Below are positions 8,181 to 24,500 of a stretch of DNA of 32,605 bases, piece by piece. The notes under the pieces were generated by a model. It was given only the letters and a program-made list of their open reading frames with translations, had not been told where the DNA came from and did no database searches. Position numbers and translations under genes: made by a program. Source of the stretch: Clostridiales bacterium (GTDB lineage Bacteria; Bacillota; Clostridia; Christensenellales; Pumilibacteraceae). Every line of letters starts with the position of its first letter. Position 1 is the first letter of the stretch. The stretch covers positions 51,030 through 83,634 of the forward strand of contig JAFLVD010000006.1 of the NCBI GenBank assembly GCA_022508485.1. Reading direction: 5' to 3'.

Positions 8181-9155
8181 TTAAAGTTCCTGTCGTATCT
8201 TTTCGGATATGTCGTTGCGCGCCAGGACGTACGCGCTTTTAATAATATGGTAAATGGTTTCTGCGGTCGCCGCGCCGTGGCCCTTTATAATCGGCGCGGA
8301 AAAGCCGAGCAGAACCGCACCGTCAAGCTCGGTGTAGTTGTACTTTTTGTACAGCTTGTCGTGAAGCTTTTTGTAGCCCTCGTCCGTTATGCCAAGCTTG
8401 TTCATTGCGGTGTCTATTTCTTTAAGCACGCCGAGCGCGACGCCTTCCATTGTTTTGAGTAAGATGTTGCCCGAAAAGCCCTCGCACACCACGACGTCGC
8501 CCTCGCCCGTAAGTATTTCCGTGCCTTCGAGGTTGCCGATAAAGTCGAGAGTGGGCGTATTTCTTAAAAGCTCGTTCGCCTTTTTGGTGAGCGCGCTGCC
8601 TTTTTTGTCCTCGGCGCCGTTGTTTAAAAGCACGACCTTAGGCTTTTCGGTGCCGATTGCCTTCATGTACGCGCAGCCGATTTTGGCGAAGCTTACAAGC
8701 TTTTCGGCGCGGCAGTCGACGTTGGCGCCGCAGTCCACTATGCAAAACGGCGTACCGTCTATCTTTCTCGGTTCGCAGAGAAGCGCCGGGCAGTCCGCTA
8801 TTTTTTTAAGCATGAGCATTGCCGCGACAAAAACCGCGCCGGTCGCGCCGCAAGTAACGACGGCCTTTGCCTTACCCTCTCTGCAAAGCTCGACGGCGGC
8901 AACGAGCGATGAGTCCTTTTTGGCGGCGATCGCTTCCATGGGGTTATCGGTATTTAATATCGTCTGCGGCGCGTCGATAACGGCAAGACGCTTTTTGTCG
9001 TACGCCTTACCCGAAACGGCTTGCTCTATTGCCGCCTTGTCGCCGCAAACATAAACGAACAAATCCTTAGTCTCGTTAAGCGCGGCGATTGCGCCCGATA
9101 TAAGACTTGACGGCGGATTGTCCGCGCCTTGAATATCAACAGCTACTTCTATCAT
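8181..9155 (-). CDS. plsX: Phosphate acyltransferase PlsX
   Basis: PlsX converts acyl-ACP and phosphate to acyl-phosphate, the donor used by PlsY to start phospholipid synthesis. It is a peripheral membrane enzyme. The 324-aa length fits. Family landmarks, somewhat diverged, are the start VAVDIQGADNPP (usually AIDAMGGDNAP), TCGATGAVF (usually SAGNTGA), LLNNGAEDKKGS, FIGNLEGTEI, VVVCEGFSGNILLK and LGFSAPIIKGHGAA. It is the last gene of the lipid operon, 20 nt after the flavoprotein gene and followed by hairpins and a terminator. Its presence links the operon to membrane lipid synthesis rather than to a purely secondary pathway. The divergence at several landmarks is odd but spread evenly, which looks like lineage drift. 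Confidence 0.93.
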   Translation of the reverse strand: MIEVAVDIQGADNPPSSLISGAIAALNETKDLFVYVCGDKAAIEQAVSGKAYDKKRLAVIDAPQTILNTDNPMEAIAAKKDSSLVAAVELCREGKAKAVVTCGATGAVFVAAMLMLKKIADCPALLCEPRKIDGTPFCIVDCGANVDCRAEKLVSFAKIGCAYMKAIGTEKPKVVLLNNGAEDKKGSALTKKANELLRNTPTLDFIGNLEGTEILTGEGDVVVCEGFSGNILLKTMEGVALGVLKEIDTAMNKLGITDEGYKKLHDKLYKKYNYTELDGAVLLGFSAPIIKGHGAATAETIYHIIKSAYVLARNDISEKIRQEL

Positions 9156-9175
9156 AACGAATATAATTCCCTAAT

Positions 9176-9916
9176 TCAGCTTTCGCCCTTCCGTTGTCTG
9201 TCCCAATACTCTTTGAGGAGATATTTATACGTCCGCTCGGTAAAAGGCGACTGCGACAGTTCCTTTAAGATCTCATCCGACACCTTGCCTTCGAGCGCAA
9301 GAATTCTTCCGGCGTCCTCGAACCGTTTTACATATTTTTCGAGCCTTTCGCCTTTTGCCGAGGCGAGAAACATCTTTAATTGCGGCACGAGCACCGCGGT
9401 GTAGTTTCCGCGTCCGCAGATACAGTCGTACTGGCATTTAAGCGCGTCGTAAGCGCCTTTAACCTCGGTGTATGCGCACGTCGAGATTACCACAAAGCTT
9501 CTGCCGGGCTTGGGGTATCGTATTCCGTGAAGCGATTCGCCGGTAAGCGACGCGGGCTGACCGGCGTACGTTTGCATAAGGCTTAGCATACGGTCGGTAA
9601 AAACCTTCATTGTGCCGGGCATACCGAAAAAGTACAGAGGATAGCTTACGATTACTATATCCGAATCGAGAATTTTCTTTTTTACGTGAATAATGTCGTC
9701 GTCCTTGATTACGCACTCGCCTTCGGTGCGCGCCCAGCACGACAGACAGCCCATGCACGGTTTGACGTTAAGGTCGGACACCGTTACAAACTCGACGTCG
9801 CACGGCGCCGCTTCCTCTATGCCTTTTACAAACCAATCGGTCGCAACAAGAGTAACGCTCTCGGCGCGGCGCGGACTTCCGTTTATTACTATAACCTTTT
9901 TCTTTTCACTTTCCAT
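9176..9916 (-). CDS. Flavodoxin-fold NAD(P)H-dependent FMN reductase family protein
   Basis: The protein is 246 aa. The N-terminus VIVINGSPRRAESV is the phosphate-binding loop of flavodoxin-like FMN reductases. PCMGCLSCW (residues about 52-60) is the cysteine-rich motif of the iron-sulfur flavoprotein/NADPH-dependent FMN reductase group, and SYPLYFFGMPGTMKVFTDRM is the conserved isoalloxazine-contact region. A later Cys pair (YDCICG) adds possible metal ligands. It is cytoplasmic, with no signal peptide. It sits inside the lipid operon, 9 nt after accA and 20 nt before plsX. It is not FabK, FabI or FabV (no TIM barrel, no SDR motifs), so it is not a recognised enoyl-ACP reductase. An electron-transfer role in lipid reduction or redox sensing is speculation. 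Confidence 0.85.
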   Translation of the reverse strand: MESEKKKVIVINGSPRRAESVTLVATDWFVKGIEEAAPCDVEFVTVSDLNVKPCMGCLSCWARTEGECVIKDDDIIHVKKKILDSDIVIVSYPLYFFGMPGTMKVFTDRMLSLMQTYAGQPASLTGESLHGIRYPKPGRSFVVISTCAYTEVKGAYDALKCQYDCICGRGNYTAVLVPQLKMFLASAKGERLEKYVKRFEDAGRILALEGKVSDEILKELSQSPFTERTYKYLLKEYWDRQRKGES

Positions 9917-9925
9917 ACCGACCGA

Positions 9926-10744
9926 CTACCTTACGGCAAACTCGGCGTACCTGCCGATTTTTCTGAATTTTTCGTACCTTTTTGCGACGAGCTTTTTTTT
10001 GTTCAGCTTTTTAAGCTCATTAAGCCTTGCGGCAAGAGCGTCGCGTAGCGAATTCATAAACGAATCGGGAACGCCTTTTGAAAAATCCGGTTCGTCCACA
10101 ATGCGCTCTACTACACCCATTTCGTAAAGGTCCTGCGCGGTAAGTTTAAGGTATTCCGCCACCTCCGCGGCACGGGACGGCTCTTTAAACAGTATACTCG
10201 CGCACGACTCGGGCGCTATTACCGAATAGTACGCGTCGGAAAGCATCCAAATCTCGTCGGCGACGGATAGTGCGAGCGCACCGCCGCTTCCGCCCTCGCC
10301 GATAACGAGCGAGAGCATAGGCGTTTTAATCGACCCAAACTCGTAAAGGTTTTCGGCAATCGCCTCGCCGATACCGCGTTCCTCGGCGGACTTACCGGGA
10401 TTTGCGCCCTGAATATCCACCAAAAACAATACCGGGCGATTAAACTTTTCCGCTTCCTTTACAAGTCGAAGCGCCTTTCTGTATCCGTCGGGAAGCGCAC
10501 AGCCGAAGTTGCGCGCGACCCTCTCGTTAAAATCCTTGCCCTTTTCGGTGCCGATAACGGTAACTGGAGTGCCGCAAAGCGTGCCGATACCGCCGATAAC
10601 CGCCGGGTCGTCGCTGAATCTTCTGTCGCCGTGCAGCTCGATAAAATCGTCTACAATGGCTTTTATATAGTCGCTCGACGTCGGTCGAAACGAGCTTCTT
10701 GTAAGGCGAACCTTATCGTACGCCTTTTTAACGGTGTTTTCCAT
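9926..10744 (-). CDS. accA: Acetyl-CoA carboxylase carboxyltransferase alpha subunit
   Basis: With AccD it forms the carboxyltransferase that moves CO2 from biotin to acetyl-CoA to make malonyl-CoA. The 272-aa length is slightly short against about 315-320, because part of the N-terminal region is reduced. Typical motifs are ELHGDRRFSDDPAVIGGIG, the GANPGKSAEERG loop, the oxyanion loop IGEGGSGGALAL and APESCASILF. The C-terminus is basic (KKLNKKKLVAKRYEKFRKIGR). It starts at ATG 10744, 4 nt after the accD stop, so the two subunits are translationally close. The biotin carboxyl carrier and biotin carboxylase genes are not in this operon. Confidence 0.96.
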   Translation of the reverse strand: MENTVKKAYDKVRLTRSSFRPTSSDYIKAIVDDFIELHGDRRFSDDPAVIGGIGTLCGTPVTVIGTEKGKDFNERVARNFGCALPDGYRKALRLVKEAEKFNRPVLFLVDIQGANPGKSAEERGIGEAIAENLYEFGSIKTPMLSLVIGEGGSGGALALSVADEIWMLSDAYYSVIAPESCASILFKEPSRAAEVAEYLKLTAQDLYEMGVVERIVDEPDFSKGVPDSFMNSLRDALAARLNELKKLNKKKLVAKRYEKFRKIGRYAEFAVR

Positions 10745-10748
10745 AAAA

Positions 10749-11558
10749 CTAAACTCTCTTACAGCCGTGAAGCATAAGCATTTTCGTTATGTAATCGCGC
10801 TGATTTTTGCGCTCGACCACGCCGTCCAAAAATCCGTGATTAAGCATAAACTCCGCCGTCTGAAAATCGGGCGGCAACTTTTCCTTAGTGTTTTGCTCTA
10901 TTACGCGCTTACCGGCAAAGCCGACGATAGAGTCCGGCTCGCCTATTATGACGTCGCCGAGACTTGCAAAGCTTGCGGTAACGCCGCCCATAGTGGGGTC
11001 GGTAACGCATTCGAGACAAAAAAGTCCTTTATCGCTGTGGCGCTTTACCGCAAGCGAGGTTTTTACCATCTGCATAAGCGAAAGAACGCCCTCTTGCATT
11101 CTCGCGCCGCCCGACGCCGTAAAGCCTATAACGGGCAAACCGTGCTTGGTCGCATACTCGAAAAGCGCGGTTATCTTGTCGCCTACGACCGTACCCATCG
11201 ACGCCATCATAAACTCGGGATTCATTACGAAAATGCAGGTGGCGTAGCCGCCGATTGTCGCCCTGCCGCAAAGCACACCCTCGTTTTCGCCGCTCTTTTT
11301 GCGCGCGGCCTCCGCCTTTCCTTTATAGTCGGGAAAGTTAATGGGGTCGGCGTGAATGTCCGCGCCGAAAAGCTCGGTAAAGCTTCCGCCGTCCACAAGA
11401 TACTCTATCCTTGCGCGCGGCGGAATTCTCATATACTTGCCGCACTTGGGGCAAATAAAGTACGAATTGGCTTTTTCCGCCGCGGTAATCTCGTTCTTGC
11501 AATTTGCGCAAACGGTTTTTTCCGCGGAAGAAGTCATTTTTTCGAGTACTCCGCTCAT
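10749..11558 (-). CDS. accD: Acetyl-CoA carboxylase carboxyltransferase beta subunit
   Basis: This is the zinc-finger subunit of the carboxyltransferase. The N-terminal four-cysteine finger is complete (Cys17, Cys20, Cys36, Cys39, as CANC...CPKC). The crotonase-fold core contains FTASGGARMQEG, VTDPTMGGVTASFASLGD and the GFAGKRVIEQ segment. The 269-aa length is normal. The start ATG overlaps the fabD stop codon (ATGA), which implies translational coupling, and the stop TAG is 4 nt before accA. The adjacent accD-accA pair is typical of Bacillota. Confidence 0.97.
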   Translation of the reverse strand: MSGVLEKMTSSAEKTVCANCKNEITAAEKANSYFICPKCGKYMRIPPRARIEYLVDGGSFTELFGADIHADPINFPDYKGKAEAARKKSGENEGVLCGRATIGGYATCIFVMNPEFMMASMGTVVGDKITALFEYATKHGLPVIGFTASGGARMQEGVLSLMQMVKTSLAVKRHSDKGLFCLECVTDPTMGGVTASFASLGDVIIGEPDSIVGFAGKRVIEQNTKEKLPPDFQTAEFMLNHGFLDGVVERKNQRDYITKMLMLHGCKRV

Positions 11559-12496
11559 GCCGCTTCACCGCCGAGAATGAGCTTGGTGGCCTCGTCGAGC
11601 GAGTTTACGTCGGTTACGGTATAGCGTACGGAGTCATCCAGCGTGCGCTTTACAAAGCCGGTAAGCGTACTGCCGGCGCCCACTTCTATAAACGTGTCCA
11701 CGCCGTCCGCCGCCATTTTTTTAATAACGGTTTCGAATCTGACCGGAGAGCAGACCTGACGGGAAACGGCGTCGATTATCCCGTCGCGCGAGGAGGGATA
11801 CGGCGCACCCGTAAGGTCGGAATAAAGCGTAACCGACGGCGCGCCGACGTTTACTCCGTCAAGCGCCTCGCGAAGCGTTTTTTCCGCTTCCGCCATGTAC
11901 GGCGTGTGGAACGCGCCGCTTACCGCAAGCTTTACCGCTCTTCCGCCGGCGGACACAATCTTTGCCGCGAGCGAATCCACTTCGTCCGGCCTGCCAGAGC
12001 AAGCTATCTGCCCGGGGCAGTTGTAGTTAACGGGCCACACCTCGGTGAACTCGGCGCAAAGGCTTTCCACCGTTTCGGCGTCGAGCTTTAATGCGGCGAT
12101 CATGCTTCCGCTGTGAAGCCTCGAAAGCTCTGCCATTTTTCTCGCGCGTTTAAGAACGAACTCGAATGCGTCGTCCACGCTTAAAACGCCGGTGTACGCA
12201 AGCGCCGGAATCTCGCCGAGCGAAAAGCCGGCGGCGCAGTCCGCTGCGATTCCGCGGTTTTTAAGTTCGAGAGCAAAGGCAAGCCCGGTCAAAAACAAGC
12301 ACGGCTGAGCGTACTCGGTGCTTTTAAGCATTTCGGGATCGCCGTTAAAGCAAATATCGGTTATTCCTTTAAAGCGCGCCTCCGCGCCGTCGAAAAGCCG
12401 ACGGGCGACGGACGAAACCTCGTACAGGTCCTTGCCCATACCTACGGTCTGCGCACCCTGACCGGAAAATAAAATAGCTGTCTTTTTCATTTCCAC
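11555..12496 (-). CDS. fabD: Malonyl-CoA:ACP transacylase FabD
   Basis: FabD transfers malonyl from CoA to the ACP thiol, supplying the extender for chain elongation. The GQGAQ loop is at residues 12-16, the nucleophile Ser92 lies in GFSLGE and the catalytic His197 in SGAFHTPYM. The 313-aa length is normal. The residue before the nucleophile is Phe instead of the usual His of GHSLGE. That position varies in other Bacillota, so it need not mean altered substrate choice. The start is taken as ATG 12496; an ATG two codons downstream is also possible. The stop overlaps accD. Upstream, the 100-nt gap from fabZ is the largest spacing inside the operon. Confidence 0.96.
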   Translation of the reverse strand: MEMKKTAILFSGQGAQTVGMGKDLYEVSSVARRLFDGAEARFKGITDICFNGDPEMLKSTEYAQPCLFLTGLAFALELKNRGIAADCAAGFSLGEIPALAYTGVLSVDDAFEFVLKRARKMAELSRLHSGSMIAALKLDAETVESLCAEFTEVWPVNYNCPGQIACSGRPDEVDSLAAKIVSAGGRAVKLAVSGAFHTPYMAEAEKTLREALDGVNVGAPSVTLYSDLTGAPYPSSRDGIIDAVSRQVCSPVRFETVIKKMAADGVDTFIEVGAGSTLTGFVKRTLDDSVRYTVTDVNSLDEATKLILGGEAA

Positions 12497-12525
12497 GTCC
12501 GATTATGTAGAAAGTTTTTTTGTTG

Positions 12526-12589
12526 CGGCGTTTCGGCACGGTAAGCGGTTTATGCGTAAACGATATACTCTGCCGCCGCGGAAACGCCG
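12526..12589 (-). other. Long-loop inverted repeat in the fabZ-fabD gap
   Basis: The 100-nt non-coding gap between fabZ and fabD holds a perfect nine-base inverted repeat: CGGCGTTTC at 12526-12534 and GAAACGCCG at 12581-12589, with 46 nt between the arms. In the transcript the stem would close about 30 nt ahead of the fabD start. No U run follows, so it is not a plain terminator. It may be an RNA structure affecting fabD expression, or chance. Confidence 0.4.
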
Positions 12590-12596
12590 TAAAAGA

Positions 12597-13049
12597 TTAT
12601 TTGTCGGAGTAAATACCGGCTTTGTCCGTTACGGTAAAAGTCATACTGCCTTTTGCGCAAACGGTATCGTTTACCTGCGCGGTAGCGTCGAAGGTTACAA
12701 GCGGACCGCCGGCGCGCGTTTTTTTAACGCTGATTTTTAAAGTGTCGCCGGGAATAACGGGTTTAACGAACTTAAAGCCGTCCACTTTTAGCAGTACGTA
12801 CAGCACCTTATCGTCGTCCTTTACGTCGCCCGACGTCATAACTATCGAGCAAAGCTGAGCGCACGCCTCTATAATAAGCACGCCGGGCATAATGGGCGCG
12901 TCCGGGAAATGCCCCACAAAGTACGGCTCGTTGACCGAAACGTTTTTAATGCCCACCGCGCTCTCGCCGGCTTCGTATTCGACGACCTTTTCTATCATCT
13001 GAAAAGGCGGACGCTGTTTTATTTTGGTGTTGACCCAATCGATATTCAT
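12597..13049 (-). CDS. fabZ: 3-hydroxyacyl-ACP dehydratase FabZ
   Basis: This hot-dog-fold dehydratase removes water from 3-hydroxyacyl-ACP to give trans-2-enoyl-ACP. The conserved segment VNEPYFVGHFPDAPIMPG contains catalytic His47, and LIIEACAQ holds catalytic Glu61, both intact. The chosen start ATG at 13049 gives 150 aa and overlaps the fabG stop by one base (TAATG). A frame extending to 13103 adds a meaningless leader inside fabG and is not used. The N-terminal motif is KQRPPFQMIEKV rather than the common HRYPFLLVDRV. It follows fabG directly in the operon. Confidence 0.95.
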   Translation of the reverse strand: MNIDWVNTKIKQRPPFQMIEKVVEYEAGESAVGIKNVSVNEPYFVGHFPDAPIMPGVLIIEACAQLCSIVMTSGDVKDDDKVLYVLLKVDGFKFVKPVIPGDTLKISVKKTRAGGPLVTFDATAQVNDTVCAKGSMTFTVTDKAGIYSDK

Positions 13050-13780
13050 TACAGCGACAAGCCTCCGTCGAGAGTTATTACCTGGCCGGTAACGTACGAG
13101 CACGCGTCGGAGGCGAGCGTAACGACGACGTTCGCCACCTCTTCGGGCGTGCCGAAACGGTGCATAGGTATCGCCTTAATATACTCTTCCACCTTGTCGG
13201 CAGGAAGCTCATGCGTCATTTCCGTTTGGATAAAACCGGGCGCGACCGCGTTTACGCGTATACCTTTTTCTCCGAGTTCTCTGGCGAGCACTCTTGTCAG
13301 CGAGTTTACCGCGCCCTTTGTCGCGCTGTACACGCTCTGCCCGGCAAGCGCCATCTCGCCGCTTACGGACGACATGTTTATGATAACGCCGCTCTTTTTG
13401 CGAAACATTTTAAGAGCCGCCGCCTGCGCGCAGTAAAAATACGCCTTAACGTTAAGGTCGAAGCACTTGTCGAGATTGTCGGTGTTAAGCATGAGCAAAA
13501 ACTCGTCCTTGACAATGCCGGCGTTGTTTACGAGAAGGTCTATTCCGCCGTACGTTTTGTCGACGGTGCGAATCATCTCGTTAACCTGCTTTTTGTCGGT
13601 AACGTCGGCGCAGTAAATCATGCCGTCGCCGCCGTTTTCTTTAACGGTGGCGAGAACCTTTTCCGCCTCTTCCTTACTGCGGCTGTAATTGATGACGACC
13701 GTATAGCCGGCTTTTGCAAGCCCTATCGCGCACGCCTTTCCGATACCTCTCGACGCGCCGGTTATAATTGCTGTTTTCAT
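13049..13780 (-). CDS. fabG: 3-oxoacyl-ACP reductase FabG
   Basis: This NADPH-dependent short-chain dehydrogenase reduces 3-oxoacyl-ACP to the 3R-hydroxy form. It has the cofactor loop TGASRGIG (residues 7-14), the NNAG motif (85-88) and the catalytic set Asn110, Ser138, Tyr151 and Lys155 (YSATK). PGFIQTEM is typical of FabG and the C-terminus ends in DGGLSL. The 243-aa length fits. ATG at 13780 comes 4 nt after the ketosynthase stop, with AAAGGAA inside the end of that gene as ribosome-binding site. The stop overlaps the fabZ start. Confidence 0.96.
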   Translation of the reverse strand: MKTAIITGASRGIGKACAIGLAKAGYTVVINYSRSKEEAEKVLATVKENGGDGMIYCADVTDKKQVNEMIRTVDKTYGGIDLLVNNAGIVKDEFLLMLNTDNLDKCFDLNVKAYFYCAQAAALKMFRKKSGVIINMSSVSGEMALAGQSVYSATKGAVNSLTRVLARELGEKGIRVNAVAPGFIQTEMTHELPADKVEEYIKAIPMHRFGTPEEVANVVVTLASDACSYVTGQVITLDGGLSL

Positions 13781-13784
13781 TTTG

Positions 13785-16178
13785 TTATTCCTTTTCGAGG
13801 ACTACCGCGGAATATCCTCCGCCCAGTCCGTAAGACGTAACGAGAAGCTTAGTAAGTGCGCCGCACTTTACTTCCGTTTTTTCTGTCTTTTTGCCTATTT
13901 TGTACGCGCTTTTTTCGGTCTCGATTTTACCCGAGAGTATAAGCGCGCCGTGCGCCGCGGAAAGCGCCGCGGAGGCCGCTCTGCCCTCGCCGAGCCGCTC
14001 TTTTACCGAAATTACGGGAACAGCTTCAAGCCTTGCGCCAAACACGCGCTTATACGACTCGATCTCCGTCTTGTCTATTTCGACGTGGCCGTTGCCGAAG
14101 CCGATAATGCCGTCGATGTCGTTTGCGGTAAGTCCGGCGTCTTTAAGCGCGATAGAGATTGCGCGGTCGAGTGCCTCGCCGCTGCCGTCGATTGTGTCGA
14201 GCGAAACGCCGTGCGTCGCCGAACCGAACCCGGAGACTTTGCAGTACTTTTTTGCGCCGCGCGTTTTGGCGCTGTTTCCGCTTTCCACAAGCAGAGTTAC
14301 CGAACCGTCCGAAAGCGTAAACTTTTTGTCCTTTCCCTTGTACGGCTTGACGATTTTATCAGCCTTTAATTCCACCTTTTCGACAAGCTCGTCCATAACG
14401 TCGCTGCTCGCGTCGGTGCCGCATGCAAGCATGGCGGCGGCGTCGCCGTTACGAATAACTTCAACCGCATAGCCGAGAGCGAAAATGCCGGACTGCACGC
14501 CGTTGGTTACGGTAACGTTATAGCCCTTAACGCCCGAGCAGATGGAAAGATATCCGCCTGCCGCGTTATAAACGGTGTTGGGGAATTTAAACGCGCTTCC
14601 GAATGCGTTGCCGCGCTCGGCAAGCATTACCTCGAAGTCGCACGCAGGGTCGACCGCGCCGGTCGAAGTTCCCACGATTATACCTATATCGAACGCGTTG
14701 TCGTCCGTTACGGTATAGCCACCGTCGGCTAATGCCTGCATACCCGAAACGGACTGAAGCTGAGAGAACCTGTCGAGCTTGCGGTAAAACGCCATTTTAA
14801 GCCCAAGCGCGTCGTAGTCCGCGGTCGAAATCGCAGAACGCAGCGTATCCGCGGTTACGCGTCCGTCCGCTTTTGCGACTTCCACGTATTTATCCACGCC
14901 GTTACCGAGCGGAGTTACCGCGCCGATACCTGTTATATGTACGTCCTTTGCGCCGACCTTTTTGACCTCTTTGGTTTTTTCGCCGAATATGATGCTCGCA
15001 TTGTTTCCGCCGAAAGCAAACGAATTGCTCATAACTGCGGAAAGCTGTTTTTTGCGCGCGGCGTTAGGCGTAAAGTCGATTTTACCTGCCTTTTCTTTAA
15101 GCGCCTCGATATCCTCGGGCGTGTAGCCTACCGTGGGCGGAACGATATTTTCCGTAAGAGCTTTTACGGCAAAAACCGCCTCGATAGCGCCTGCCGCGCC
15201 GAGACAGTGTCCCGTCATCGATTTGGTGGACGATACGCTTAAATCGGGATTTTTGTCGTCGAAAATAGTGTGAAGCGACAAGAACTCCGCCTGGTCGTTT
15301 TTGGCGGTGCCCGTGCCGTGCGCGTTAACGTAGTTTATGTCGGACTCGCTAATTCCGGCCGCGGCCATTGCGCGAGAGATTGCCTTCATCTGCCCCTCGC
15401 CGTCGGGACGAGGTGCGGTAATGTGGTGCGCGTCGCTCGTAATTCCTGAGCCGAGCACCTCGCAGTATATGTGCGCGCCGCGCGCTTTGGCGTGAGCCAT
15501 GCTCTCCACAACGAGCGCCGCGCTTCCTTCGCCGAGGTTAAGCCCCACCGAATGATTAAACGGCGAGCAAGGCTTGTCGGATAGAGCGTGAAGCGAGATA
15601 AATCCGGCGTAAGGCACGGACGAGAACGCGTCCGAACCGCCGGCTATAACGACGTCCGCCTTTCCTGCGCGGATAATGTCGACGGCGTACGCAATGCTTA
15701 TAGTGCCTGCGGCACAAGCGTTGGCGACGTTGGTTACCACGCCGCCGGCGCCGACTTTACGCGCGACCTGAGACGCGATTGAAGAAATGGGCATTTGAAG
15801 AACGGTGTTCTTGTCCTTTTTTCCGTCCTTGTAGTAGCTGTCGATACTGACGGCGCCGCCTACGCAGCTTCCCATAATTACCGCCGCCTTGCCGTCGCCG
15901 TTAAAGCCTTTAAGCCCTGCGTCGCGCATAGCCTCTTCGGTAGCCCTTATGCAAAGCTTTGTAACCCTGTCGACGCCTGCGTTTTCGGGCGTGTCGAGGT
16001 CGGGGCATTTTACTTCGCCGGCATAATCGGCGTAACAATCCTTTGTGTCGACCGCAGTCGTATGTTCGATTCCGCTTTTTCCTTCTACCGCGTTTTTCCA
16101 GCACTCGTCGACCGAGTTGCCGATTGCGCACAGCATACCGAGTCCTGTTATTACACAGCGCTTTTCGTCATTTATCAT
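13785..16178 (-). CDS. fabF: Fused ketosynthase and chain-length-factor-like didomain (FabF-type)
   Basis: The protein is 797 aa, twice the length of FabF. Residues 1-400 form a complete beta-ketoacyl-ACP synthase: nucleophile Cys155 in NACAAGT, His287 in NAHGTGT, His324 in MTGHCLGAAG, and the FAFGGNN end motif. After a short linker a second thiolase-fold half begins at about 412 (VHITGIGAVTPLGNG). All three catalytic positions are lost there: Cys becomes Val561 (NGVQSG), and the two His align with Gly695 and Glu731. The fold markers remain (YAVEVIRNG, the SDGSV loop, YGLGGGYSAVV). This active/inactive pairing matches KS with chain-length factor in type II polyketide and aryl-polyene systems and the KS-CLF of PUFA synthases. 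Start ATG at 16178 has a strong AAGGAGG. It is the second gene of the operon. Confidence 0.93.
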   Translation of the reverse strand: MINDEKRCVITGLGMLCAIGNSVDECWKNAVEGKSGIEHTTAVDTKDCYADYAGEVKCPDLDTPENAGVDRVTKLCIRATEEAMRDAGLKGFNGDGKAAVIMGSCVGGAVSIDSYYKDGKKDKNTVLQMPISSIASQVARKVGAGGVVTNVANACAAGTISIAYAVDIIRAGKADVVIAGGSDAFSSVPYAGFISLHALSDKPCSPFNHSVGLNLGEGSAALVVESMAHAKARGAHIYCEVLGSGITSDAHHITAPRPDGEGQMKAISRAMAAAGISESDINYVNAHGTGTAKNDQAEFLSLHTIFDDKNPDLSVSSTKSMTGHCLGAAGAIEAVFAVKALTENIVPPTVGYTPEDIEALKEKAGKIDFTPNAARKKQLSAVMSNSFAFGGNNASIIFGEKTKEVKKVGAKDVHITGIGAVTPLGNGVDKYVEVAKADGRVTADTLRSAISTADYDALGLKMAFYRKLDRFSQLQSVSGMQALADGGYTVTDDNAFDIGIIVGTSTGAVDPACDFEVMLAERGNAFGSAFKFPNTVYNAAGGYLSICSGVKGYNVTVTNGVQSGIFALGYAVEVIRNGDAAAMLACGTDASSDVMDELVEKVELKADKIVKPYKGKDKKFTLSDGSVTLLVESGNSAKTRGAKKYCKVSGFGSATHGVSLDTIDGSGEALDRAISIALKDAGLTANDIDGIIGFGNGHVEIDKTEIESYKRVFGARLEAVPVISVKERLGEGRAASAALSAAHGALILSGKIETEKSAYKIGKKTEKTEVKCGALTKLLVTSYGLGGGYSAVVLEKE

Positions 16179-16225
16179 AGTATGACAATGACCTCCTTAT
16201 ATATGGGTGTGTATAGTAAATCCGA

Positions 16226-16468
16226 TTAGGAATTAGCGACTATGTAAGCGGCGATAGCGTCGATATTATAAAAATGATCCTTGCCGACGCCCGTCATCGA
16301 AACGCCGTACTCGCCGTCGACGTACGAAATAATCTCGAGCGAGTCGATAGAGTCGAGACCTATACCGTCCGAAAAGAGCGGAGTGTCGTACTCGAGCTGG
16401 TCGGCTTCGATACCGAGGTTGTTGCAGAAAAAGTCTTTAAGACCCTGTTTGATTTTGAGTTCGTCCAT
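16226..16468 (-). CDS. Acyl carrier protein with DSID motif
   Basis: This is an 80-aa four-helix carrier protein, acidic, and the first gene of the lipid operon. The phosphopantetheine site is the Ser of IGLDSIDSLEII (Ser40). Housekeeping AcpP normally has DSLD at this point with a glycine or alanine before the Asp, whereas the LDSID form is frequent in carriers of specialised systems such as aryl-polyene clusters. Helix III is preceded by an unusual GVGKDHFYNIDAIAAYI stretch. AGGAGA precedes the ATG at 16468 by 6 nt. The next gene, the KS didomain, follows 47 nt later, so this is most likely the cognate carrier. Whether a second, canonical ACP exists elsewhere cannot be seen from this window. 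Confidence 0.94.
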   Translation of the reverse strand: MDELKIKQGLKDFFCNNLGIEADQLEYDTPLFSDGIGLDSIDSLEIISYVDGEYGVSMTGVGKDHFYNIDAIAAYIVANS

Positions 16469-16548
16469 GATTGTTCTCCTAAGATATTGATTGTGCGGAA
16501 TCTCCGCGAAACAGACAGATTTAACGTATTTTCCGTCTTACCACGGTC

Positions 16549-16577
16549 ATTATACACCTCTAAATATAAACTCAAAA
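16549..16577 (-). promoter_or_regulatory. Promoter of the lipid operon
   Basis: A perfect -10 box TATAAT (16554-16549, minus strand) lies 80 nt before the acp start. The -35 is weak: TTGAGT stands 15 nt upstream, and TTTTGA would give 17 nt. Poor -35 quality suggests activation or tight regulation. This is the only promoter-like element between the kinase terminator and acp. Confidence 0.65.
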
Positions 16578-16607
16578 TAAACTTTTACACAATTTGTTTA
16601 AACTTTT
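16578..16607 (-). promoter_or_regulatory. 21-nt-spaced direct repeat upstream of the lipid promoter
   Basis: The nonamer AAAAGTTTA (minus strand) occurs twice, at 16607-16599 and 16586-16578, exactly 21 nt apart, about two helical turns. A partial third copy (GAGTTTA) overlaps the -35 area. Same-face spacing next to a weak -35 is what a dimeric or cooperative regulator would need. It does not resemble the FapR operator I know. The AT-rich background makes chance possible. Confidence 0.4.
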
Positions 16608-16619
16608 GTAAGTTTTTTG

Positions 16620-16647
16620 TAAAAAAACCGAGGCTCGCCGCCCCGGT
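16620..16647 (-). terminator. Rho-independent terminator of the two-component operon
   Basis: On the minus strand ACCGGGGC-GGCGA-GCCTCGGT forms an eight-pair stem with one G-U pair (16647-16627), followed by seven or more T residues. It lies 64 nt beyond the kinase stop and isolates the lipid operon from read-through. Confidence 0.9.
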
Positions 16648-16710
16648 CAATCTTTATATAAACTAAATTTCCGTATATACCGAATCGAGTACCGATAAAC
16701 AATTTAAGCG

Positions 16711-17778
16711 TCAGGCAGGAAGCTCTACGGTAAAAACGGTTTTGTCGCCCTCTCTTCCCACGCTCACCGTGCCGTCGTGAAGATCGACGATGCGCTTTAC
16801 TATGGAAAGGCCTATGCCGTTTCCGGCAATGGAATGGGACTCGTCGATTTGGTAGAACTTGCCGAAAATCTTTTCCCTGTACTCTTCGGGAATGTCGGGA
16901 CCTGTGTCCGCTATTTTAACGGCGATTTTGCCGCCTTGCGAGGTTACGTCTATTTCCAGCTCGCCCTCTTCAAACGCGAACTTAATTGCGTTGTCGAGCA
17001 GGTTTATCCATACCTGGCGCATCATATCCTCGTTTGCCTCTAACGTCGTGTCGTCGAAATCCATCGACAGTTTAAGCTTTTTTTGCGTCCAGTTGCGCTC
17101 TAAAAGAAGCACGCACATTCTTATCTGCTCGGAAACGTTGTACTCGGTTTTGTCGGTTATTATTTCCTGGCTTTCGTACTTGGTAAGGTTGAGAATGTTG
17201 GTGGTTATCATGGCAAGGCGCTGCGTTTCTTCCTCTATGATGTTTAAATATTCAATCTGCTTTTCGCGCGGAAGGTCCTTGCTTTTAAGAAGGCTTATAA
17301 ATCCGTTAATCGACATTATGGGCGTTTTAAACTCGTGCGAAAAGTTGTTTATAAAGTCGGAACGCAGTATCTCTACGTTTTGAAGCTGTTTCGCAAGCGC
17401 GTTAAAGCCGCGGTAAATGCTTTCTATATCGCCCGGGCCTTTGTAGCTGAGCCTCGTGTCGAACTTGCCCTCGGCGAGTTTTCCCATGCCGTCTATTATA
17501 TCGTTTATCGGTTTAAGGTATATGCTTCCGGCAAGGTAGGATAAAGCCGCGCCCGAAATGATACCCGTCATGGCGATAACTATAATTGCGACAATCCAGC
17601 TCGTCGCGCCCAACTCGTCCACGGCGTATTCTAGGTACAGCCTGTCGAGCAAAAGTGTGATTACCGATACGAGCGTAACAATGATAATCGCGCCGATAAT
17701 AAACGCGTTGCGAATAGTGCGCTTAGACTCTTTGTACGTTATGTCGTCGCGCTCTTCCAAACTCTGCTTTAACTTCAT
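16711..17778 (-). CDS. Membrane sensor histidine kinase
   Basis: The kinase is 355 aa with two membrane helices (about 25-45 and 60-84) separated by only about 15 extracytoplasmic residues, so it probably senses membrane state or a partner rather than a soluble ligand. A HAMP linker follows (about 85-138). The H-box is FSHEFKTPI (phosphoaccepting His148), the N-box NLLDNAIKFA (259-268), the G1 box DTGPD (usually DTGPG, 291-295), the F-box FGKF and the G2 box GNGIGLSIVK (319-328). The start overlaps the response-regulator stop (ATGA, 17778-17775), a typical coupled pair. The cognate signal and targets are not readable; the neighbouring surface and lipid genes are candidates. Confidence 0.95.
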   Translation of the reverse strand: MKLKQSLEERDDITYKESKRTIRNAFIIGAIIIVTLVSVITLLLDRLYLEYAVDELGATSWIVAIIVIAMTGIISGAALSYLAGSIYLKPINDIIDGMGKLAEGKFDTRLSYKGPGDIESIYRGFNALAKQLQNVEILRSDFINNFSHEFKTPIMSINGFISLLKSKDLPREKQIEYLNIIEEETQRLAMITTNILNLTKYESQEIITDKTEYNVSEQIRMCVLLLERNWTQKKLKLSMDFDDTTLEANEDMMRQVWINLLDNAIKFAFEEGELEIDVTSQGGKIAVKIADTGPDIPEEYREKIFGKFYQIDESHSIAGNGIGLSIVKRIVDLHDGTVSVGREGDKTVFTVELPA

Positions 17779-18449
17779 ACCTTTATCACCGCCTTATATC
17801 CAAGCCCACGGATATTGTCTATCTCGAACTCCTCCCAGCCGTCGAACCGTTTACGAAGCCTGCCTATATGCACGGCGACGGTCTCGACGCCCGTTTCGCA
17901 GTCCACGCCCCATATTTCGTCCATAAGCTGAATCTTGGTAAAAATCTTATTGGGCGAGGACAGCAATTTATAAAGAAGCATAAATTCCTTTTGGGGAAGC
18001 TCGTGCGCCTCGCCGCGCCGAGTAACGGTAAACGAGTCGTAGTCTATCTCGACGTCGCCTATCTGCATGCGCCGCCCTGCCGCCGTCTTGCCGCGCGAGA
18101 GAAGCGCCCTGACGTGCAGGACAAGCTCTTCCGCGTCGATAGGCTTTGTCATAAAGTCGTCTATGCCGACGTGGAAGCCCTTTTTTCTGTCCTCGGGAAG
18201 CTGTTTAGCGGAAATCATGAGTACGAGCAAATCCTTATTGGACGCGCGAATCTGACGGGTAAGCTCGTACCCGTCAGTTCCCGGCATCATAATATCGACA
18301 ATGAGAATATCTATAAACTGCTTGTCGTAAATGTCGAGCGCTTCCTCGGCGGACTTGGCGGTAAAAACCATATACCGCTCAAGCTCTAACGCTTCCTTAA
18401 TAAAGTAGCGCGTGTTTTTATCGTCGTCGACAACGAGAACGCGAAACAT
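17775..18449 (-). CDS. OmpR/PhoB-family response regulator
   Basis: The protein has 224 aa with the chosen start. The receiver domain holds the acidic pocket DDD (8-10), phosphoacceptor Asp52 (IVDIMMPGTDG), the Ser of MISAK and the conserved Lys of TKPID. A winged-helix effector domain follows (about 128-224) with the typical ETVAVHIGRLRKR recognition region and closing IRGLGYKA. The start at 18449 is chosen because AAGGAGAG lies 5 nt ahead and the protein begins directly with MFRVLVVDDD. A longer frame to 18479 would add ten basic residues encoded by the leader. Transcribed from its own promoter and coupled to the kinase gene. Confidence 0.96.
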   Translation of the reverse strand: MFRVLVVDDDKNTRYFIKEALELERYMVFTAKSAEEALDIYDKQFIDILIVDIMMPGTDGYELTRQIRASNKDLLVLMISAKQLPEDRKKGFHVGIDDFMTKPIDAEELVLHVRALLSRGKTAAGRRMQIGDVEIDYDSFTVTRRGEAHELPQKEFMLLYKLLSSPNKIFTKIQLMDEIWGVDCETGVETVAVHIGRLRKRFDGWEEFEIDNIRGLGYKAVIKV

Positions 18450-18495
18450 TGTCTCTCCTTTTTTGCGCGCGCGGCGCATAACGCTTTATAAAAAA

Positions 18496-18574: not shown

Positions 18575-21500
18575 TTACGTTATCGTAAGCGTGCCGCTCT
18601 TTACGGATATAAGGTAACAGTCGGTAACGTCGTTACCGTACGCGTCGTAGATAGTAACCTCGTCGATAACGTTTTCGGTAACGCCTTTATCCACGCGGCT
18701 TCCGGTGATTACCGCCTCGTACCTGTGTCCGCTTACGAGACTGCCACTCGATATTACCGAGTCGGGACAAGTAAGCGCTTCCCCGTCGTACGCCTTTTGC
18801 CTGCTCATTGCGCTTATCGTTATGCTTCGCTGGGTAACGGTAAGTCCGCCCTCGAAGTTGACGTAGAAGTTTTCGGTGGATATTTCCTCGCCGTTCGCGT
18901 CGTAGAAGTGCAAAATTTCGGGGTGCGACTTGTAGTATTCTTTTACGGTAATCGACTCTTGAGGCTTTGTTACGGACATTTCGGAGAGGTCAAGCTCGGT
19001 GTTAACTATTACGTCCGGCTTTTGCATTACCATAAAGTACCGTTTGGACGTATTGAATTTAAGCGGTGTGCCGTCGTAAACCTTCGAAGCCGAAAGAACG
19101 AGAATTTGCACCTGCGTGGTCGTTATCTCGATTTCGCCCTCGCCGTAGATAATATTAAACAGATTTGTAACGTCGTCGCCGCGCTCGTTGAACAGCGTGA
19201 ACGACTCGATTATGCTCGGACTGACGCCGTAGTCGGTGCGCGAACCGCTGAAATGCGCCTCATAGGTATAGCCGACGGAAAGAAGATTGTTAAGAAGCAC
19301 TTTTGTAGCGGCGTCCGCACCCTCTATAACCTGCGGACCTTCCGAAGCGTCGAGAGGGGTCCCGTCGTACTCCTTGTTGATATCGACGGGCTTAATGAAC
19401 AGATCCTGCTTATCCGCCGAACCGCCGGCGCCGCCCGGAGTAACCTCGACGGCTACCCAGCCGATTCCGTCTATAAACACTTCTACCCAGGCATGGCCGG
19501 ACTTGTTTGTAACGACCTGCTCGCCGCCGACCGATTTTACCGAATAGCCTATGGTATAGCGCGCCGGAATTCCTATCATGCGGTAAAGAAGCGTAGCGAG
19601 CGAAGCGTAGTGTCTGCACACGCCCTCGCCTGCCTCGATAAACGCGATAACCCTATCGTCCGCGTCGTCGATCGCCTTATCGTAAGTGTCGTTATACGTT
19701 GCAATAGACATGACGTATGCCGCAACGAGGTTTATGACGTCGGGATTGGCTACCGTAAAGCTCGGATTTTCGTCGAGAATATGTTCTTTGAGGTACGCGC
19801 CGGTAGAGTCGAACACGTCGAGATAGTTTTCGTACACGTACGTACGATACGCCGAAGGAATCTCGATACGGTTAAGAACCGCGCGCGGATTGTACGTAAA
19901 CGGATAGTGAGTAAACGTGTAGTCCTCGTAGCTGTCCGCAATGTATATGTCGTTTTTGTTCGCCTTCTGCGCGTCCGACATGTCGTCGTAAAGCGAATAG
20001 TACGGCATAAGGAAGTTACCGGTAACCGGCTTGCCGCTGCCGTTTTTAATAATGGAAACTGCGGTGGTGTACGCGGTCTTGCCCGAGGCGCGAAGCGCTT
20101 CCGCACCGTAATAGAGCGCGCTCATATCGGTATCGAGGTACGGCGCCACCGAGTTATCCCAGTTCGTTCCGAAGAAGTTGCCGTAGCTTAAATACCTGAA
20201 ATACATCTGCCCGGCGTAGTCCGTATTTATCGTAAATACGGGAGACGGATTGGCAGGAGGTCCGCCGCCTGCAAGGTCGCCGTCCAAATCCCAATTATCG
20301 TCTTTATCGTCGGACGGCTCTTTGACTGTAAGCGTGCCGCACTCGACGGTAATTTCGTAAAGGTCGGAAAGGTCCTCGCCCGAATATATGTTTTTAATAG
20401 TGAACTCCGCGGTATTATCGCTCTTGCCTACTTCCGTACGGCTTCCCGTAACGGTTACTTCGAGAATATCGGTAGGCAAAAGCTCGCCGATAAGCTCGTA
20501 ATCGTGCGCGGTAAGCGGTTCTCCGTCGAAAACCTTTTCGTCGGACGCGGTTTTAATTATAAGCTTGCGCTTGGTAACGGTAAGTCCGCCCTCGATATCG
20601 ACGTAGAAGTCGTCCGCCGAAAGCTCTTCCCCATCCTCGCCGTAAATGCGCAATACGTGCTTATTATCTTCGTAATAATCTCTTACGAAAATCGACTCTT
20701 GGGGCTTGGTAACCGACAATTCGGAAAGATCAAGCTCTACTCTCGATACGGCAGACGGCTGCTTTATAACGGTGTAATAGCTCTTGGTAACGTCGTATTT
20801 AAGCGGCGTGCCGTCGTACTCTTTGGTAAGGTCGAGCACGGATATCCTAATCTGCGGCATGGTGATCTCGATTGTGCCCAAGTTATAGACGACGTTAAAC
20901 TGATTGGTAACGTCCTCGCCAAGCTCGTTAAACAGCTTAAACGATTTTATTTCGCTAAAACCTATGCCTATCTCTGTGCGCGAGCCGCTTAATTGCGCTT
21001 CGTAGGTGTAGCCTGCCGAAAGAAGATTTTGAAGAAGGGTGATGCTTTCTATATCGGTGCCCACAACAGCCTGCTCGCCCTTCGACGCGTCGAGAGGGGT
21101 TCCGTCGAATTCCTTAGAAATATCGACCGGCTTAATGGAAAGCTTCGGCTTGCCTTCTCCGCCACCGCCGCCGCCCATGCCTGCGCCGCCCGGCGTAACC
21201 TCTATCTGGACCCAACCCATTCCGTCGAGGAAAACTTCTACCCAGGCGTGGCCGGTATCGCTTTTAACAAGCTGCTCTCCGCCCTCCGCCGTAACGGAAT
21301 AGCCTATGGTATAGCGCGCAGGAATGCCTATCATACGGTAAATAAGCGTAGCGAGCGAAGCGTAATGCCTGCATACACCCTCGCCTGCCTCGATAAACGC
21401 AATTATCCTATCGTCCGCGGCGTCAATCGATCTGTCGTACTTGTCGTTGTATACGGCGCAAGTGAGAACGTAAGAAGCTACGTGGTTTATAACCTCGGGA

Positions 21501-24500
21501 TTGGACAGAGTAAACGTCGGGTTGAAATTAAGAATATTCTCTTGCAGGTACTGCGCGGTCGATTGCCTAACGTCGAGATAATTGGCGTAGACGTAAGAAC
21601 GGTACGCTTCGGGAATGTTCGCGCCCGTAGGCAAATCGTCATTCGAGTATGCGTACGGATAATGGGTAAAGGTGTACTGCTCGTAGCTGCTCGAAATATA
21701 AATATCGTTTTTGTTTGACTTTTCCTCTTCTCGCATGTCGCCGAAAAGCGCATAGTAAGGAAGAAGGAAGTTTTTGGTGGCAAGCTTGCCGTCATCTTTT
21801 TCGTAGATTGTAACCGTGGTGGAGTACGAAGCCGCGCCAGACTGTTTAAGCGCTTCCGCGCCGTAATAGAGCGCGCTCATATCGGCGTCGAGGTACGGGC
21901 TTATGCCGTTATCCCAGTTCTTTCCGTCGTAGTTGCCGTAGCTTAAATATCTAAGGTACATGTGTCCGACGTACTCGGTGTCGATTGTGAATACGGGTAC
22001 GGGATTGCTGGGAACGCCGCCGCCTGCGAGGTCGCCGTCCAATTCGCCGTCGCCGTCGCCGCCCGAATCGCCGGTAACGGTAAGCGTGCCGCACTCGACC
22101 TGAATGTCGTACATGCCGGTAACGTCCTCGCCCGAGTACTTGTTGGTAACAATGTACTCTATGGTGTTGTCGCTCTTACCGACTTGCGTTTGACTGCCTG
22201 TAAACGTTACTTGAAGGCTGTCCGTAGGTAGCGGCTCGCCTTCCACAATTTCGTATTCGTGCGCGGTAAGCGGCGTGCCGTCGTATTCCTTTTCGGCGGA
22301 CGCGGTTTTTATTTTTATAACTATGCCGACAACCGTCAGGTTTCCGTACTCGTAGTTGATTCTGAATTTATACGTAATATCCTCGCCCGTCGACAGGTCG
22401 AAAATTACTACGTTTTCCTCGTCCACGTTGTTGTAAACCGAGCCGACTAAGGTGATAGTGCCTATTACGGTAAGCTTAATCTCGTAGCCGTCGGGCAATC
22501 CCTCGACAGAGTATTCGTCGCAGGTAAGCGGCGCGCCGTCGTAAACCTTTTCGGCGGAACCCGTTTTTACGGTTATTTCGTTATCGAACACGGTCAGCGT
22601 GCCGTACTGATAGATAATCTCGTACATCTCCGACACGTCGTTACCGTCGCCGTCCGTAACCACCGCCTCGAAAAGGTTATCGCTCGAGCCGAGGTCGGTC
22701 TGTTCCCCGTAAACGGTAACGTGAACGGTATGCCCGTCGATAAGCGCGACGGTATCCACGTAGTAGTCGCCGCAGGTAAGCGGAGTGCCGTCGTAAACCT
22801 TTTGCGCGCTGCCCGTCGATATCAAGAGCGGTATTGCGGTAACGGTAAGAGTTCCCATGTGCGTGAACGCAATGTTGTAATTCTGCGTAACGTCGATGCC
22901 CTCGCCGTTTATTATTTGATAGGAGTGAGCGTTTGCCACGCTGCCTATCTCGGTTATCGTGGGATAGTCGACAAGCTCGATTTCGTCGCCGGGCAGAAGA
23001 ACCTCCGGGTTAACAACGGTGTACTCTATCTCGTAATGCGCCGTCCCGTCGTAAACCCACTGCCCGTCCGCAGTATCCACGGAAAGATTTCGCGGCTTGA
23101 TTTCGAGCCATCCGTCCACAAACAGAACGGCAATCATGCCCTCGTCTTCCTCTTTGAAGCGATTGCCGCAGCTGTCGTAAGCCTCTATACCGAGCACTCT
23201 CGTCGCGCACGTTTCAAAAACGTGCGTTGCCGAATAGGTAGGCATAATTACCGTAAAGTACGAGCCGTCGTCCGCAAGGTAGTATCTGTCCGAAACGGGC
23301 TGGGTTACGCCCTCTATGACGACGGTATAGTCGCCGACAGTAAGCGGCGTGCCGTCGTATTCCTTTTCGGCAGAGCCGGCCGTAATTACGATATTGATTT
23401 GAACGACCTCGAGCAAGCCGTCGAAAAACTCTATCTCGTAGCAATCGGTTACTTCGCCGACATACTCGTTGTAAATCTTAAACGTAGACCTGTCTATAAC
23501 GTTGGGCACGCTTCCGACGTCGGTTATAGTCGATTCCGCGGTCATGGAAAACTCGGCGTAATCGACGGAAGCAATGCCGACCTCGCCCTCTTCCCCGTCT
23601 GCGAGCAACGTCGAAATATCGTTAAGCGTAAGCGGCAGACCGTCGTACGGCTTAGAGCTGCTGCCGGCGGTTACGGTTATTTTTCGCACCGTTACGGTAA
23701 GCGTGCCGTCGTACGTCGTAAACGAGTAGCTACTCGTAACGTCCGTATCGCCGCAGTAAATCTTAGTTGCGTTAAGGTCGATAACGTTATCGACGCTTCC
23801 CACTTTAATTAAGGACGAACTTTCCGTCGTTACGATTTCGATTCTGTCGCCGTCAGCAAGTCCTTCGCCCTCGCCTTCTTTAAGCACGTAATCGAGACAG
23901 GTTAAAGGCAGGCCGTCGTAAACCTTTTCGTCCGACCCTGCGGTAACGGTAATCGGTCTCGGCGTAACGGTAAGAGTTGCCACAAACACGACAACGGTAT
24001 AGTTGTCCGTCGAATCCGTGCCGTTAGCCTTATCTATTCTGAAATCGAGGATATTATCGACAGGCTTACTCGTTACGTACTTAACCTCGGTGTGCCTTGT
24101 TATGACGATTGTTTCGCCGTCCGCAACAGGCATGCTGTTTCTTCTGAAAATACGGTAAACGTCGGGGTCGTTTATAAGCACCTCGTACCCTTCGTCAAAA
24201 TGCCATTGTCCGTTGTAGACGAACGTATTTTCGGCGGTCAAAAACGCGACGAGCCGCTTTGTAATGCTTATCGTGCCGTACTCGTAGGTTATGTCGTAAT
24301 TCTCGGTCGAATCGGATCCGTCTGCCTTTTCTATCGTGATTGTGAGCACGTTGTCGACGGGATCGCGCGCATGGTCGACAACCGCCGTCGCGTCGTGAAT
24401 AGTGCAATTCTCGCCGTCCGCCAATTTCAGATCCGAAGTAAAGCTTATATACTCGTACGTATGTTCTTTGCCGTCGTACTCGAACGATCTTGTTCCCGAC

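What the first reader, a model, noticed from the sequence alone, without database searches (positions are those of the whole stretch)
13785..16178. Single-chain KS plus catalytically dead KS (chain-length-factor-like) in a fatty-acid operon
Seen: one 797-aa frame holds an intact KS (Cys155, His287, His324) and a second KS fold in which these align with Val561, Gly695 and Glu731. Known: KS/CLF heterodimers with an inactive partner set chain length in type II polyketide and aryl-polyene systems, and a fused KS-CLF occurs in PUFA synthases (PfaC). Ordinary FabF is a homodimer of active subunits. Inference: a covalent KS-CLF working with free-standing FabG, FabZ, FabD and ACP would fix product length or type in a way not standard for bacterial membrane-lipid synthesis.
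Basis: partly seen in the sequence, partly recalled or inferred. Interest (0 to 1): 0.72.

Follow-up and report, generated by a model that had tools for sequence, protein, structure and literature searches.

The report
Single-chain KS–CLF lipid-synthesis cassette
A gut bacterium makes its only fatty-acid-type chain-building enzyme as one long protein, a working half joined to a permanently dead half, inside a small gene cassette that is shared by very different gut and rumen bacteria and probably makes a special membrane lipid chain.

Summary
Observation confirmed, with two corrections: the ORF is on the minus strand, and His287 aligns with Phe694, not Gly695. The 797-aa protein is a ketosynthase (KS) with Cys-His-His fused to a full-length degenerate KS (chain-length factor, CLF) whose equivalent positions are never Cys or His in 48 rows (Glu731 in 48 of 48). 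The CLF half is under purifying selection. The AlphaFold model (pTM 0.93) matches the PfaC KS-CLF didomain (6riw) over the whole chain. The fusion is not local: 80 homologues from Clostridia, Fibrobacter, Treponema and Mollicutes were retrieved, 79 of them with FabG and FabZ, 74 with ACP, 52 with a flavoprotein nearby; PlsX or acyltransferase genes are frequent. In the window genome it is the only KS; FabH, FabK and FabV were not found, FabI not recognised. Eight single-FabF relatives tested all have FabH plus FabK or FabV. The KS half groups with the aryl-polyene KS ApeO and other single-chain fusions, not FabF. Best reading: a transferable, probably self-priming acyl-chain synthase feeding membrane lipids, with the flavoprotein as candidate enoyl reductase. 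The product is unknown; a polyene remains possible. New variant of a known kind (KS–CLF).

The parts
13785..16178 (-). single-chain KS-CLF, 797 aa (KS residues 1-404, CLF about 405-797)
16226..16468 (-). acyl carrier protein (80 aa; GLDSIDSLE site), closer to an E. coli aryl-polyene ACP than to E. coli AcpP
   Evidence: 42.8 bits to APE ACP2, 17.0 to AcpP
13049..13780 (-). FabG-type ketoreductase
   Evidence: a homologue in 79 of 80 loci
12597..13103 (-). FabZ-type dehydratase (likely true ATG start near 13049, overlapping the FabG stop)
   Evidence: a homologue in 79 of 80 loci
11555..12496 (-). FabD-type malonyl-CoA:ACP transacylase
10749..11558 (-). AccD, acetyl-CoA carboxylase carboxyltransferase beta
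9926..10744 (-). AccA, acetyl-CoA carboxylase carboxyltransferase alpha
9176..9916 (-). flavodoxin-fold FMN reductase-like protein with CX2CX2CX7C motif; candidate enoyl reductase (inference)
8181..9155 (-). cassette copy of PlsX (acyl-ACP:phosphate acyltransferase); the genome has a second PlsX elsewhere
16711..17778 (-). sensor histidine kinase upstream of the cassette (seen with it in the same-genus loci L026, L027, L029, L030)
17775..18479 (-). response regulator (OmpR/PhoB type)

Best explanation
The ORF is a single-chain KS-CLF: the first half is the active, Cys-dependent ketosynthase; the second is a catalytically dead partner that packs against it as in a KS dimer and helps shape the acyl tunnel (so, probably, chain length). 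It is the condensing enzyme of a transferable cassette (ACP, KS-CLF, FabG, FabZ, often a CX2CX2CX7C flavoprotein, plus lineage-dependent FabD/Acc and PlsX or acyltransferase) that makes an acyl chain and passes it as acyl-ACP to membrane-lipid synthesis. Shown: architecture, dead and conserved CLF, pseudo-dimer in a predicted model, cassette, sole KS found in this genome, failure to find FabH, FabK or FabV here. Inferred: priming by decarboxylation of malonyl-ACP (about 0.55), delivery to phospholipid through the cassette PlsX (about 0.7), flavoprotein as enoyl-ACP reductase (about 0.4), fixed chain length (about 0.6).
For: Residues. Purifying selection. The best-conserved stretch of the CLF half is 525-564 (0.93 and 0.87 against a mean of 0.66), aligned with the FabF segment I recall as the dimer-interface/tunnel wall. 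Model pLDDT 89.8, pTM 0.93. Foldseek rank 1 is 6riw, the PfaC KS-CLF: TMq 0.76 over the whole chain against 0.45-0.47 for the single KSs listed. Around the fusion in the 80 loci, by BLAST with window proteins: ACP 74, FabG 79, FabZ 79, flavoprotein 52, FabD 32, PlsX 15 of 80; a cluster of PF01553/patatin-type ORFs in 42 of 80 (one member scanned). Co-inheritance with the fusion: r 0.88-0.93 for ACP, FabG, FabZ; 0.68 for the flavoprotein. Only KS in G000. FabH: 8 of 8 single-FabF relatives tested against 1 of 7 fusion genomes of the family. FabK or FabV: 8 of 8 against 0 of 6. Two PlsX in G000, one in each of the nine KS-less genus members tested. Flavoprotein present in 5 of 5 same-genus loci and 11 of 11 assessable sole-KS loci.
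Against: No product, no biochemistry, mostly MAG data. The KS branch is shared with ApeO, whose cluster makes polyenes. The link from flavoprotein to ene-reductase is weak (35 bits over 79 residues to 7d38), the gene is absent near the cassette in 12 loci with room for it, and it follows the fusion's distances less closely. FabK exists in 5 of 13 sole-KS genomes. G000 has partial PF03060 hits (best 34.2 bits over 91 positions, above that family's cut-off), though only 22 bits with the FabK model. FabH is missing from many genomes that do have extra KSs (20 of 30), so its absence alone does not prove self-priming. G012 has a 66-bit FabH-like hit and only one PlsX, the cassette's. Foldseek rmsd to 6riw is 8.0 at 18% identity, so the match is global, not precise.
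Confidence: 0.62

Rival explanations
1. The cassette is an aryl-polyene-like (highly reducing type II) polyketide system: ACP, KS-CLF, KR and DH without an enoyl reductase make a conjugated polyene that is put on a lipid by PlsX or the acyltransferase; the flavoprotein has another role.
For: The KS half groups with ApeO and other single-chain KS-CLFs at 100/99; the ACP is nearer an APE ACP; no FabI/FabK/FabV-type enoyl reductase was recognised in G000; acyltransferase/patatin-type genes accompany 42 of 80 cassettes.
Against: No acyl-CoA-synthetase-type priming ligase, second KS or MMPL exporter in the window operon, unlike the E. coli APE cluster; the CLF half is full length, whereas the E. 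coli CLF is 240 aa; 13 of 43 surveyed cassette genomes show no other KS, which is hard to square with a pigment-only role unless they take up all their fatty acids.
Confidence: 0.27
2. It is simply the housekeeping fatty-acid synthase of these bacteria with an evolutionarily degenerate FabF tandem; the dead half is only a structural dimer partner with no control of chain length.
For: Sole KS in G000 and in 13 of 43 surveyed cassette genomes; N half is FabF-like by profile (365 bits to TIGR03150, cut-off 493.75).
Against: Most surveyed carriers also have other KSs (30 of 43), among them Eubacterium sp. AF22-9 (L035/G065: FabF-like KS, FabH, FabK), whose fusion is 99.6% identical to that of L. 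eligens; G000 keeps a second PlsX and four DegV proteins; the halves are old and the KS half is not with the FabF rows.
Confidence: 0.15
3. It is a stand-alone PUFA-type system: the KS-CLF with the FabZ-like dehydratase inserts cis double bonds and makes a long polyunsaturated acyl chain for the membrane.
For: Best whole-chain structural match is PfaC KS-CLF.
Against: No PfaA/B/D-type multidomain protein in the window operon, one single-domain ACP, one FabZ; 18% identity to 6riw.
Confidence: 0.06

Closest known systems
PfaC KS-CLF didomain of PUFA synthases (6riw; Santin et al. 2020, known to me only from the reference list and passages of PMC12895367)
   Same: Active KS and dead CLF in one chain; whole-chain structural match; lipid-acyl product
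   Different: 18% identity; Pfa is a multidomain megasynthase; here ACP, KR and DH are separate proteins
Aryl-polyene KS-CLF ApeO-ApeC
   Same: KS half in the ApeO branch; APE-like ACP; KR and DH partners; acyltransferase-like neighbours in many loci
   Different: Two separate chains with a half-size CLF (PMC8358021 passages); priming ligase, second KS ApeR and exporter not seen in the window operon
Ishigamide KS/CLF (6kxd)
   Different: Two proteins, Iga11-Iga12 (PMC8358021 passage); secondary metabolite
FabF (FAS II elongation KS)
   Same: KS half fold and active site; FabG/FabZ/FabD/Acc neighbours
   Different: FabF is a homodimer of active subunits; different branch in the tree
Single-chain KS-CLFs of Priestia megaterium plasmid pBMG6, Streptomyces NBC_00335, Pseudalkalibacillus, Lactiplantibacillus plasmids
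   Same: Same order: active KS, then a dead KS, in one ORF
   Different: N halves 29.5-39% identical to the window's; different gene surroundings

Membership tests
KS-CLF (general) | Active KS paired with a KS fold lacking Cys-His-His | tested here: met
KS-CLF (general) | KS and CLF pack as a pseudo-twofold dimer | tested here: met
   predicted model only: pTM 0.93 and whole-chain match to 6riw with TMq 0.76, rmsd 8.0; not seen experimentally
KS-CLF (general) | CLF sets product chain length | not testable with these tools
   no product known
PUFA synthase (PfaC) | KS-CLF in one chain | tested here: met
PUFA synthase (PfaC) | Multidomain megasynthase with DH domains in the same chain and tandem ACPs | tested here: not met
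   only KS/thiolase-type domains in the ORF; one 80-aa ACP, FabG and FabZ as separate ORFs
Aryl-polyene cluster | KS in the ApeO lineage | tested here: met
   with one ApeO (E. coli) on a long branch
Aryl-polyene cluster | Half-size separate CLF | tested here: not met
   CLF half about 390 aa and fused; E. coli CLF 240 aa
Aryl-polyene cluster | Priming ligase, second KS, MMPL exporter in the cluster | tested here: not met
   none in window 8181-18479
Aromatic type II PKS | CLF with Gln/Glu at the Cys position (label recalled) and Asp/Arg at the His positions | tested here: not met
   two Streptomyces CLFs show E or Q, D, R; the window shows V, F, E
FabF (FAS II) | Homodimer of active subunits, FabF clade | tested here: not met
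   dead second half; KS half outside the FabF rows
FLR-type ene-reductase (flavoprotein only) | Sequence relation to FLR (7d38) | tested here: inconclusive
   best PDB hit but 35 bits over residues 33-111
FLR-type ene-reductase (flavoprotein only) | Ene-reductase activity on enoyl-ACP | not testable with these tools
   needs an assay

The most novel reading that the evidence does not exclude
A complete, horizontally spread fatty-acid-type synthase that uses a covalent KS-CLF both to prime (by malonyl-ACP decarboxylation, no FabH) and to set chain length, and an iron-sulfur-motif flavodoxin-family protein as a new kind of enoyl-ACP reductase (no FabI, FabK or FabV). In some gut bacteria it is the only de novo acyl-chain synthase; in others it adds a second, dedicated acyl pool with its own PlsX or acyltransferase.
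Probability: 0.33. Interest if true: 0.82.

Novelty: new variant of a known kind. Interest (0 to 1): 0.63.

Why it matters
KS-CLF pairs are known from polyketides, aryl polyenes and PUFA synthases. Here one sits as a single chain among free-standing FAS II enzymes and lipid genes in gut and rumen bacteria labelled as four phyla, including cultured ones (Lachnospira eligens, Fibrobacter intestinalis). If it makes membrane acyl chains, it shows how a lineage that lost FAS II can regain chain synthesis from one cassette, and it puts chain-length control and an unknown enoyl-reduction step within easy reach of experiment.

Tried and rejected
Recent tandem duplication of a local FabF: rejected by the trees. 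Assembly or frameshift artefact: rejected (76 of 80 loci intact; the other four reach contig edges). Celluxanthene/flavoaffinin pigments as the known counterpart: those clusters use a type I PKS (passages of PMC12144888, and PMC11839114), so unrelated. FabI in G000: four SDR hits; the cassette FabG, a YmfI/FabG-like and a KdsR-like one were looked at, the fourth (62.6 bits) was not examined; of the other nine genomes only part of the hits were looked at, by eye. FabH was tested in 8 of the 12 relatives that gave a single-FabF match over most of a KS. 9s5h, the closest solved relative of the KS half by sequence (285 bits), could not be tied to a paper (0 papers). Searches for a fused KS-CLF of this kind in print: 11 papers; the listing shows PUFA synthases, type II PKS catalogues and other natural-product work; 0 papers; listings; none listed it, but subscription journals are not held. 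The type II PKS catalogue PMC10132072 was read by passages only (no 'fused' or 'fusion'). Phylum-wide draw at E 1e-60: 1 of 398 genomes, the window's own. The flavoprotein structure could not be run. The VIA-align listing showed only the KS half, so it tests nothing about the CLF half.

Full report
OBSERVATION. The window's 797-aa ORF lies at 16178->13785 on the minus strand. It holds two KS folds that are 25-27% identical to each other. The first has Cys155, His287 and His324. In 48 fusions (window plus 47 of the 80 loci; 33 were left out, four because they are cut at contig edges, the rest to thin the set) the KS residues are C 48/48, H 48/48, H 47/48 plus one X. The CLF positions 561 and 694 are never C or H, and Glu731 is 48/48. 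dN/dS of the closest pair tested is 0.104 for the KS half and 0.145 for the CLF half. In the CLF half, residues 525-564 are the most conserved stretch.

HISTORY. In a 71-row tree (21 of the 48 fusions as halves, four distant fusions, 21 other KSs/CLFs) the KS halves of the cassette, of the four distant single-chain fusions, and ApeO fall together (100/99), apart from FabF of the relatives; all CLF halves lie on the other side. Dropping the CLF halves and several long rows leaves the KS grouping at 100/99. Several rows have long branches, and the exact place of ApeO is unsure. The fusion is therefore old and is not a local FabF duplicate.

DISTRIBUTION. A scan of 84,980 species genomes with two motifs of the CLF half found 272 relatives; the best 80 were kept, so more divergent forms may be missed. 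By record label they are Clostridia 28, Fibrobacteria 26, Spirochaetia 16, Mollicutes 6, Erysipelotrichia 2, Bacilli 1, unassigned 1; labels are the submitters'. 76 hold a full-length fusion; four reach contig edges, and one of these (L028) shows the CLF half only. The Fibrobacter and Treponema rows used (apart from Treponema L042) form one group among clostridial rows, beside L035 in the KS halves, which points to transfer between phyla. L. eligens ATCC 27750 carries ACP, KS-CLF, FabG, FabZ, FabD, AccD, flavodoxin, PlsX in this order on a 627-kb plasmid; AccA is not in that gene table, but there is a gap that fits it, and L035, whose fusion is 99.6% identical, has AccA there. An even draw of 398 genomes of the phylum found only the window's own. 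Within the genus, 6 of 20 genomes carry it (one split over two contigs) and 14 show no KS match at all (10 of these are at least 91% complete).

CASSETTE. Of 80 loci, by BLAST with the window's proteins: ACP 74, FabG 79, FabZ 79, flavoprotein 52, FabD 32, AccD 21, AccA 20, PlsX 15 (a stricter gene calling gave FabG 77, FabZ 78, flavoprotein 51). L053 lacks FabG, FabZ and flavoprotein. A cluster of acyltransferase/patatin-type ORFs lies within 5 kb of the fusion in 42 of 80; its one scanned member has PF01553 and patatin domains. Distances of ACP, FabG and FabZ follow those of the fusion (r 0.88, 0.93, 0.90), the flavoprotein less (0.68). The window ACP is nearer an E. coli aryl-polyene ACP (42.8 bits) than AcpP (17.0).

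GENOME CONTEXT. The window genome (2.07 Mb, 95.8% complete) has no other KS. FabH: 1 of 7 fusion genomes of the family (G012, 66 bits; G003 counted) against 8 of 8 single-FabF relatives tested. FabK or FabV: 0 of 6 (G003 not searched) against 8 of 8. Partial, weak hits to the wider FabK family PF03060 occur in G000 (best 34.2 bits). The genome keeps four DegV proteins and two PlsX, one in the cassette; the KS-less genus members tested (G002, G004, G005, G010, G013, G014, G016, G017, G018) have one PlsX each; of the fusion genomes tested, G001, G007, G015 and G026 have two and G012 one, in the cassette. I read this as a fatty-acid-scavenging genus in which some species have added the cassette. 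In 43 genomes reached through cassette loci (43 of the 80), 13 show no KS besides the fusion (for G090 I take three pieces on two contigs as the split fusion) and 30 have more; FabH is found in 1 of 13 and 10 of 30. Among the 13, FabK is strong in 5 and FabV in none. Completeness of these genomes is not told, so absences are provisional.

FLAVOPROTEIN. All 53 cassette-locus flavoproteins (from 52 loci) have CX2CX2C followed by a Cys at the X5-9 spacing searched (X7 in the window). It is present in 5 of 5 same-genus loci, 11 of 11 assessable sole-KS loci, 25 of 27 assessable loci with further KSs and 11 of 21 assessable loci of unsurveyed genomes; 16 of 80 are unassessable (2 sole-KS, 3 further-KS, 11 unsurveyed). 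The 12 loci without it are 10 labelled Fibrobacter and 2 labelled Treponema. The best PDB hit is 7d38, deposited as a structure of FLR, an ene-reductase (data-availability passage and abstract of PMC7862272), but at only 35 bits. This makes an ene-reductase role possible, not shown.

VERDICT. KS-CLF single chain: about 0.93. Membrane-lipid acyl chain as product: about 0.7. Self-priming: about 0.55. Flavoprotein as enoyl reductase: about 0.4. The strongest rival is a polyene product, given the ApeO kinship.

Noticed in passing
window 18575-28906 (-) and 28906-32547 (-): Two giant neighbouring ORFs of 3443 and 1213 aa with transglutaminase-core domains, upstream of the two-component genes.
   Followed up: no
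window 6542-7762 (-): 406-aa ORF without a Pfam match, 78% identical in L026, downstream of PlsX.
   Followed up: no
genus of the window (G002, G004, G005, G010, G011, G013, G014, G016, G017, G018): Ten genomes at least 91% complete show no ketosynthase match at all, suggesting loss of fatty acid synthesis in much of the genus.
   Followed up: partly
L147 4762-7191, L151 5938-8304, L152 5992-8286, L153 3986-6247: Distant single-chain KS-dead-KS proteins on Priestia, Streptomyces, Pseudalkalibacillus and Lactiplantibacillus plasmids, in different gene surroundings.
   Followed up: partly
L064, L074, L075, L086, L092, L093, L095, L100: ORFs clustering with a BadF/BcrAD plus DUF2229 protein (one member, L093, scanned) lie near the cassette; from memory this resembles the plasmalogen gene PlsA.
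   Followed up: no
L039, L041, L044, L049, L063 (Ruminococcus-labelled MAGs): Cassette with PlsX in Ruminococcus-labelled genomes; R. flavefaciens DSM 25089, assumed to make a pigment like that of C. thermocellum, is reported to lack a cex-like cluster (PMC12144888 passage).
   Followed up: no
L053 6514-9167: Treponema-labelled locus with ACP and KS-CLF but no FabG, FabZ or flavoprotein recognised in 17 kb.
   Followed up: no
genomes G079, G088, G099 (Fibrobacter) and G063, G072, G087, G095 (Treponema): Several KSs but no PF08541 FabH match, so these groups may prime ordinary fatty acid synthesis without a standard FabH.
   Followed up: no
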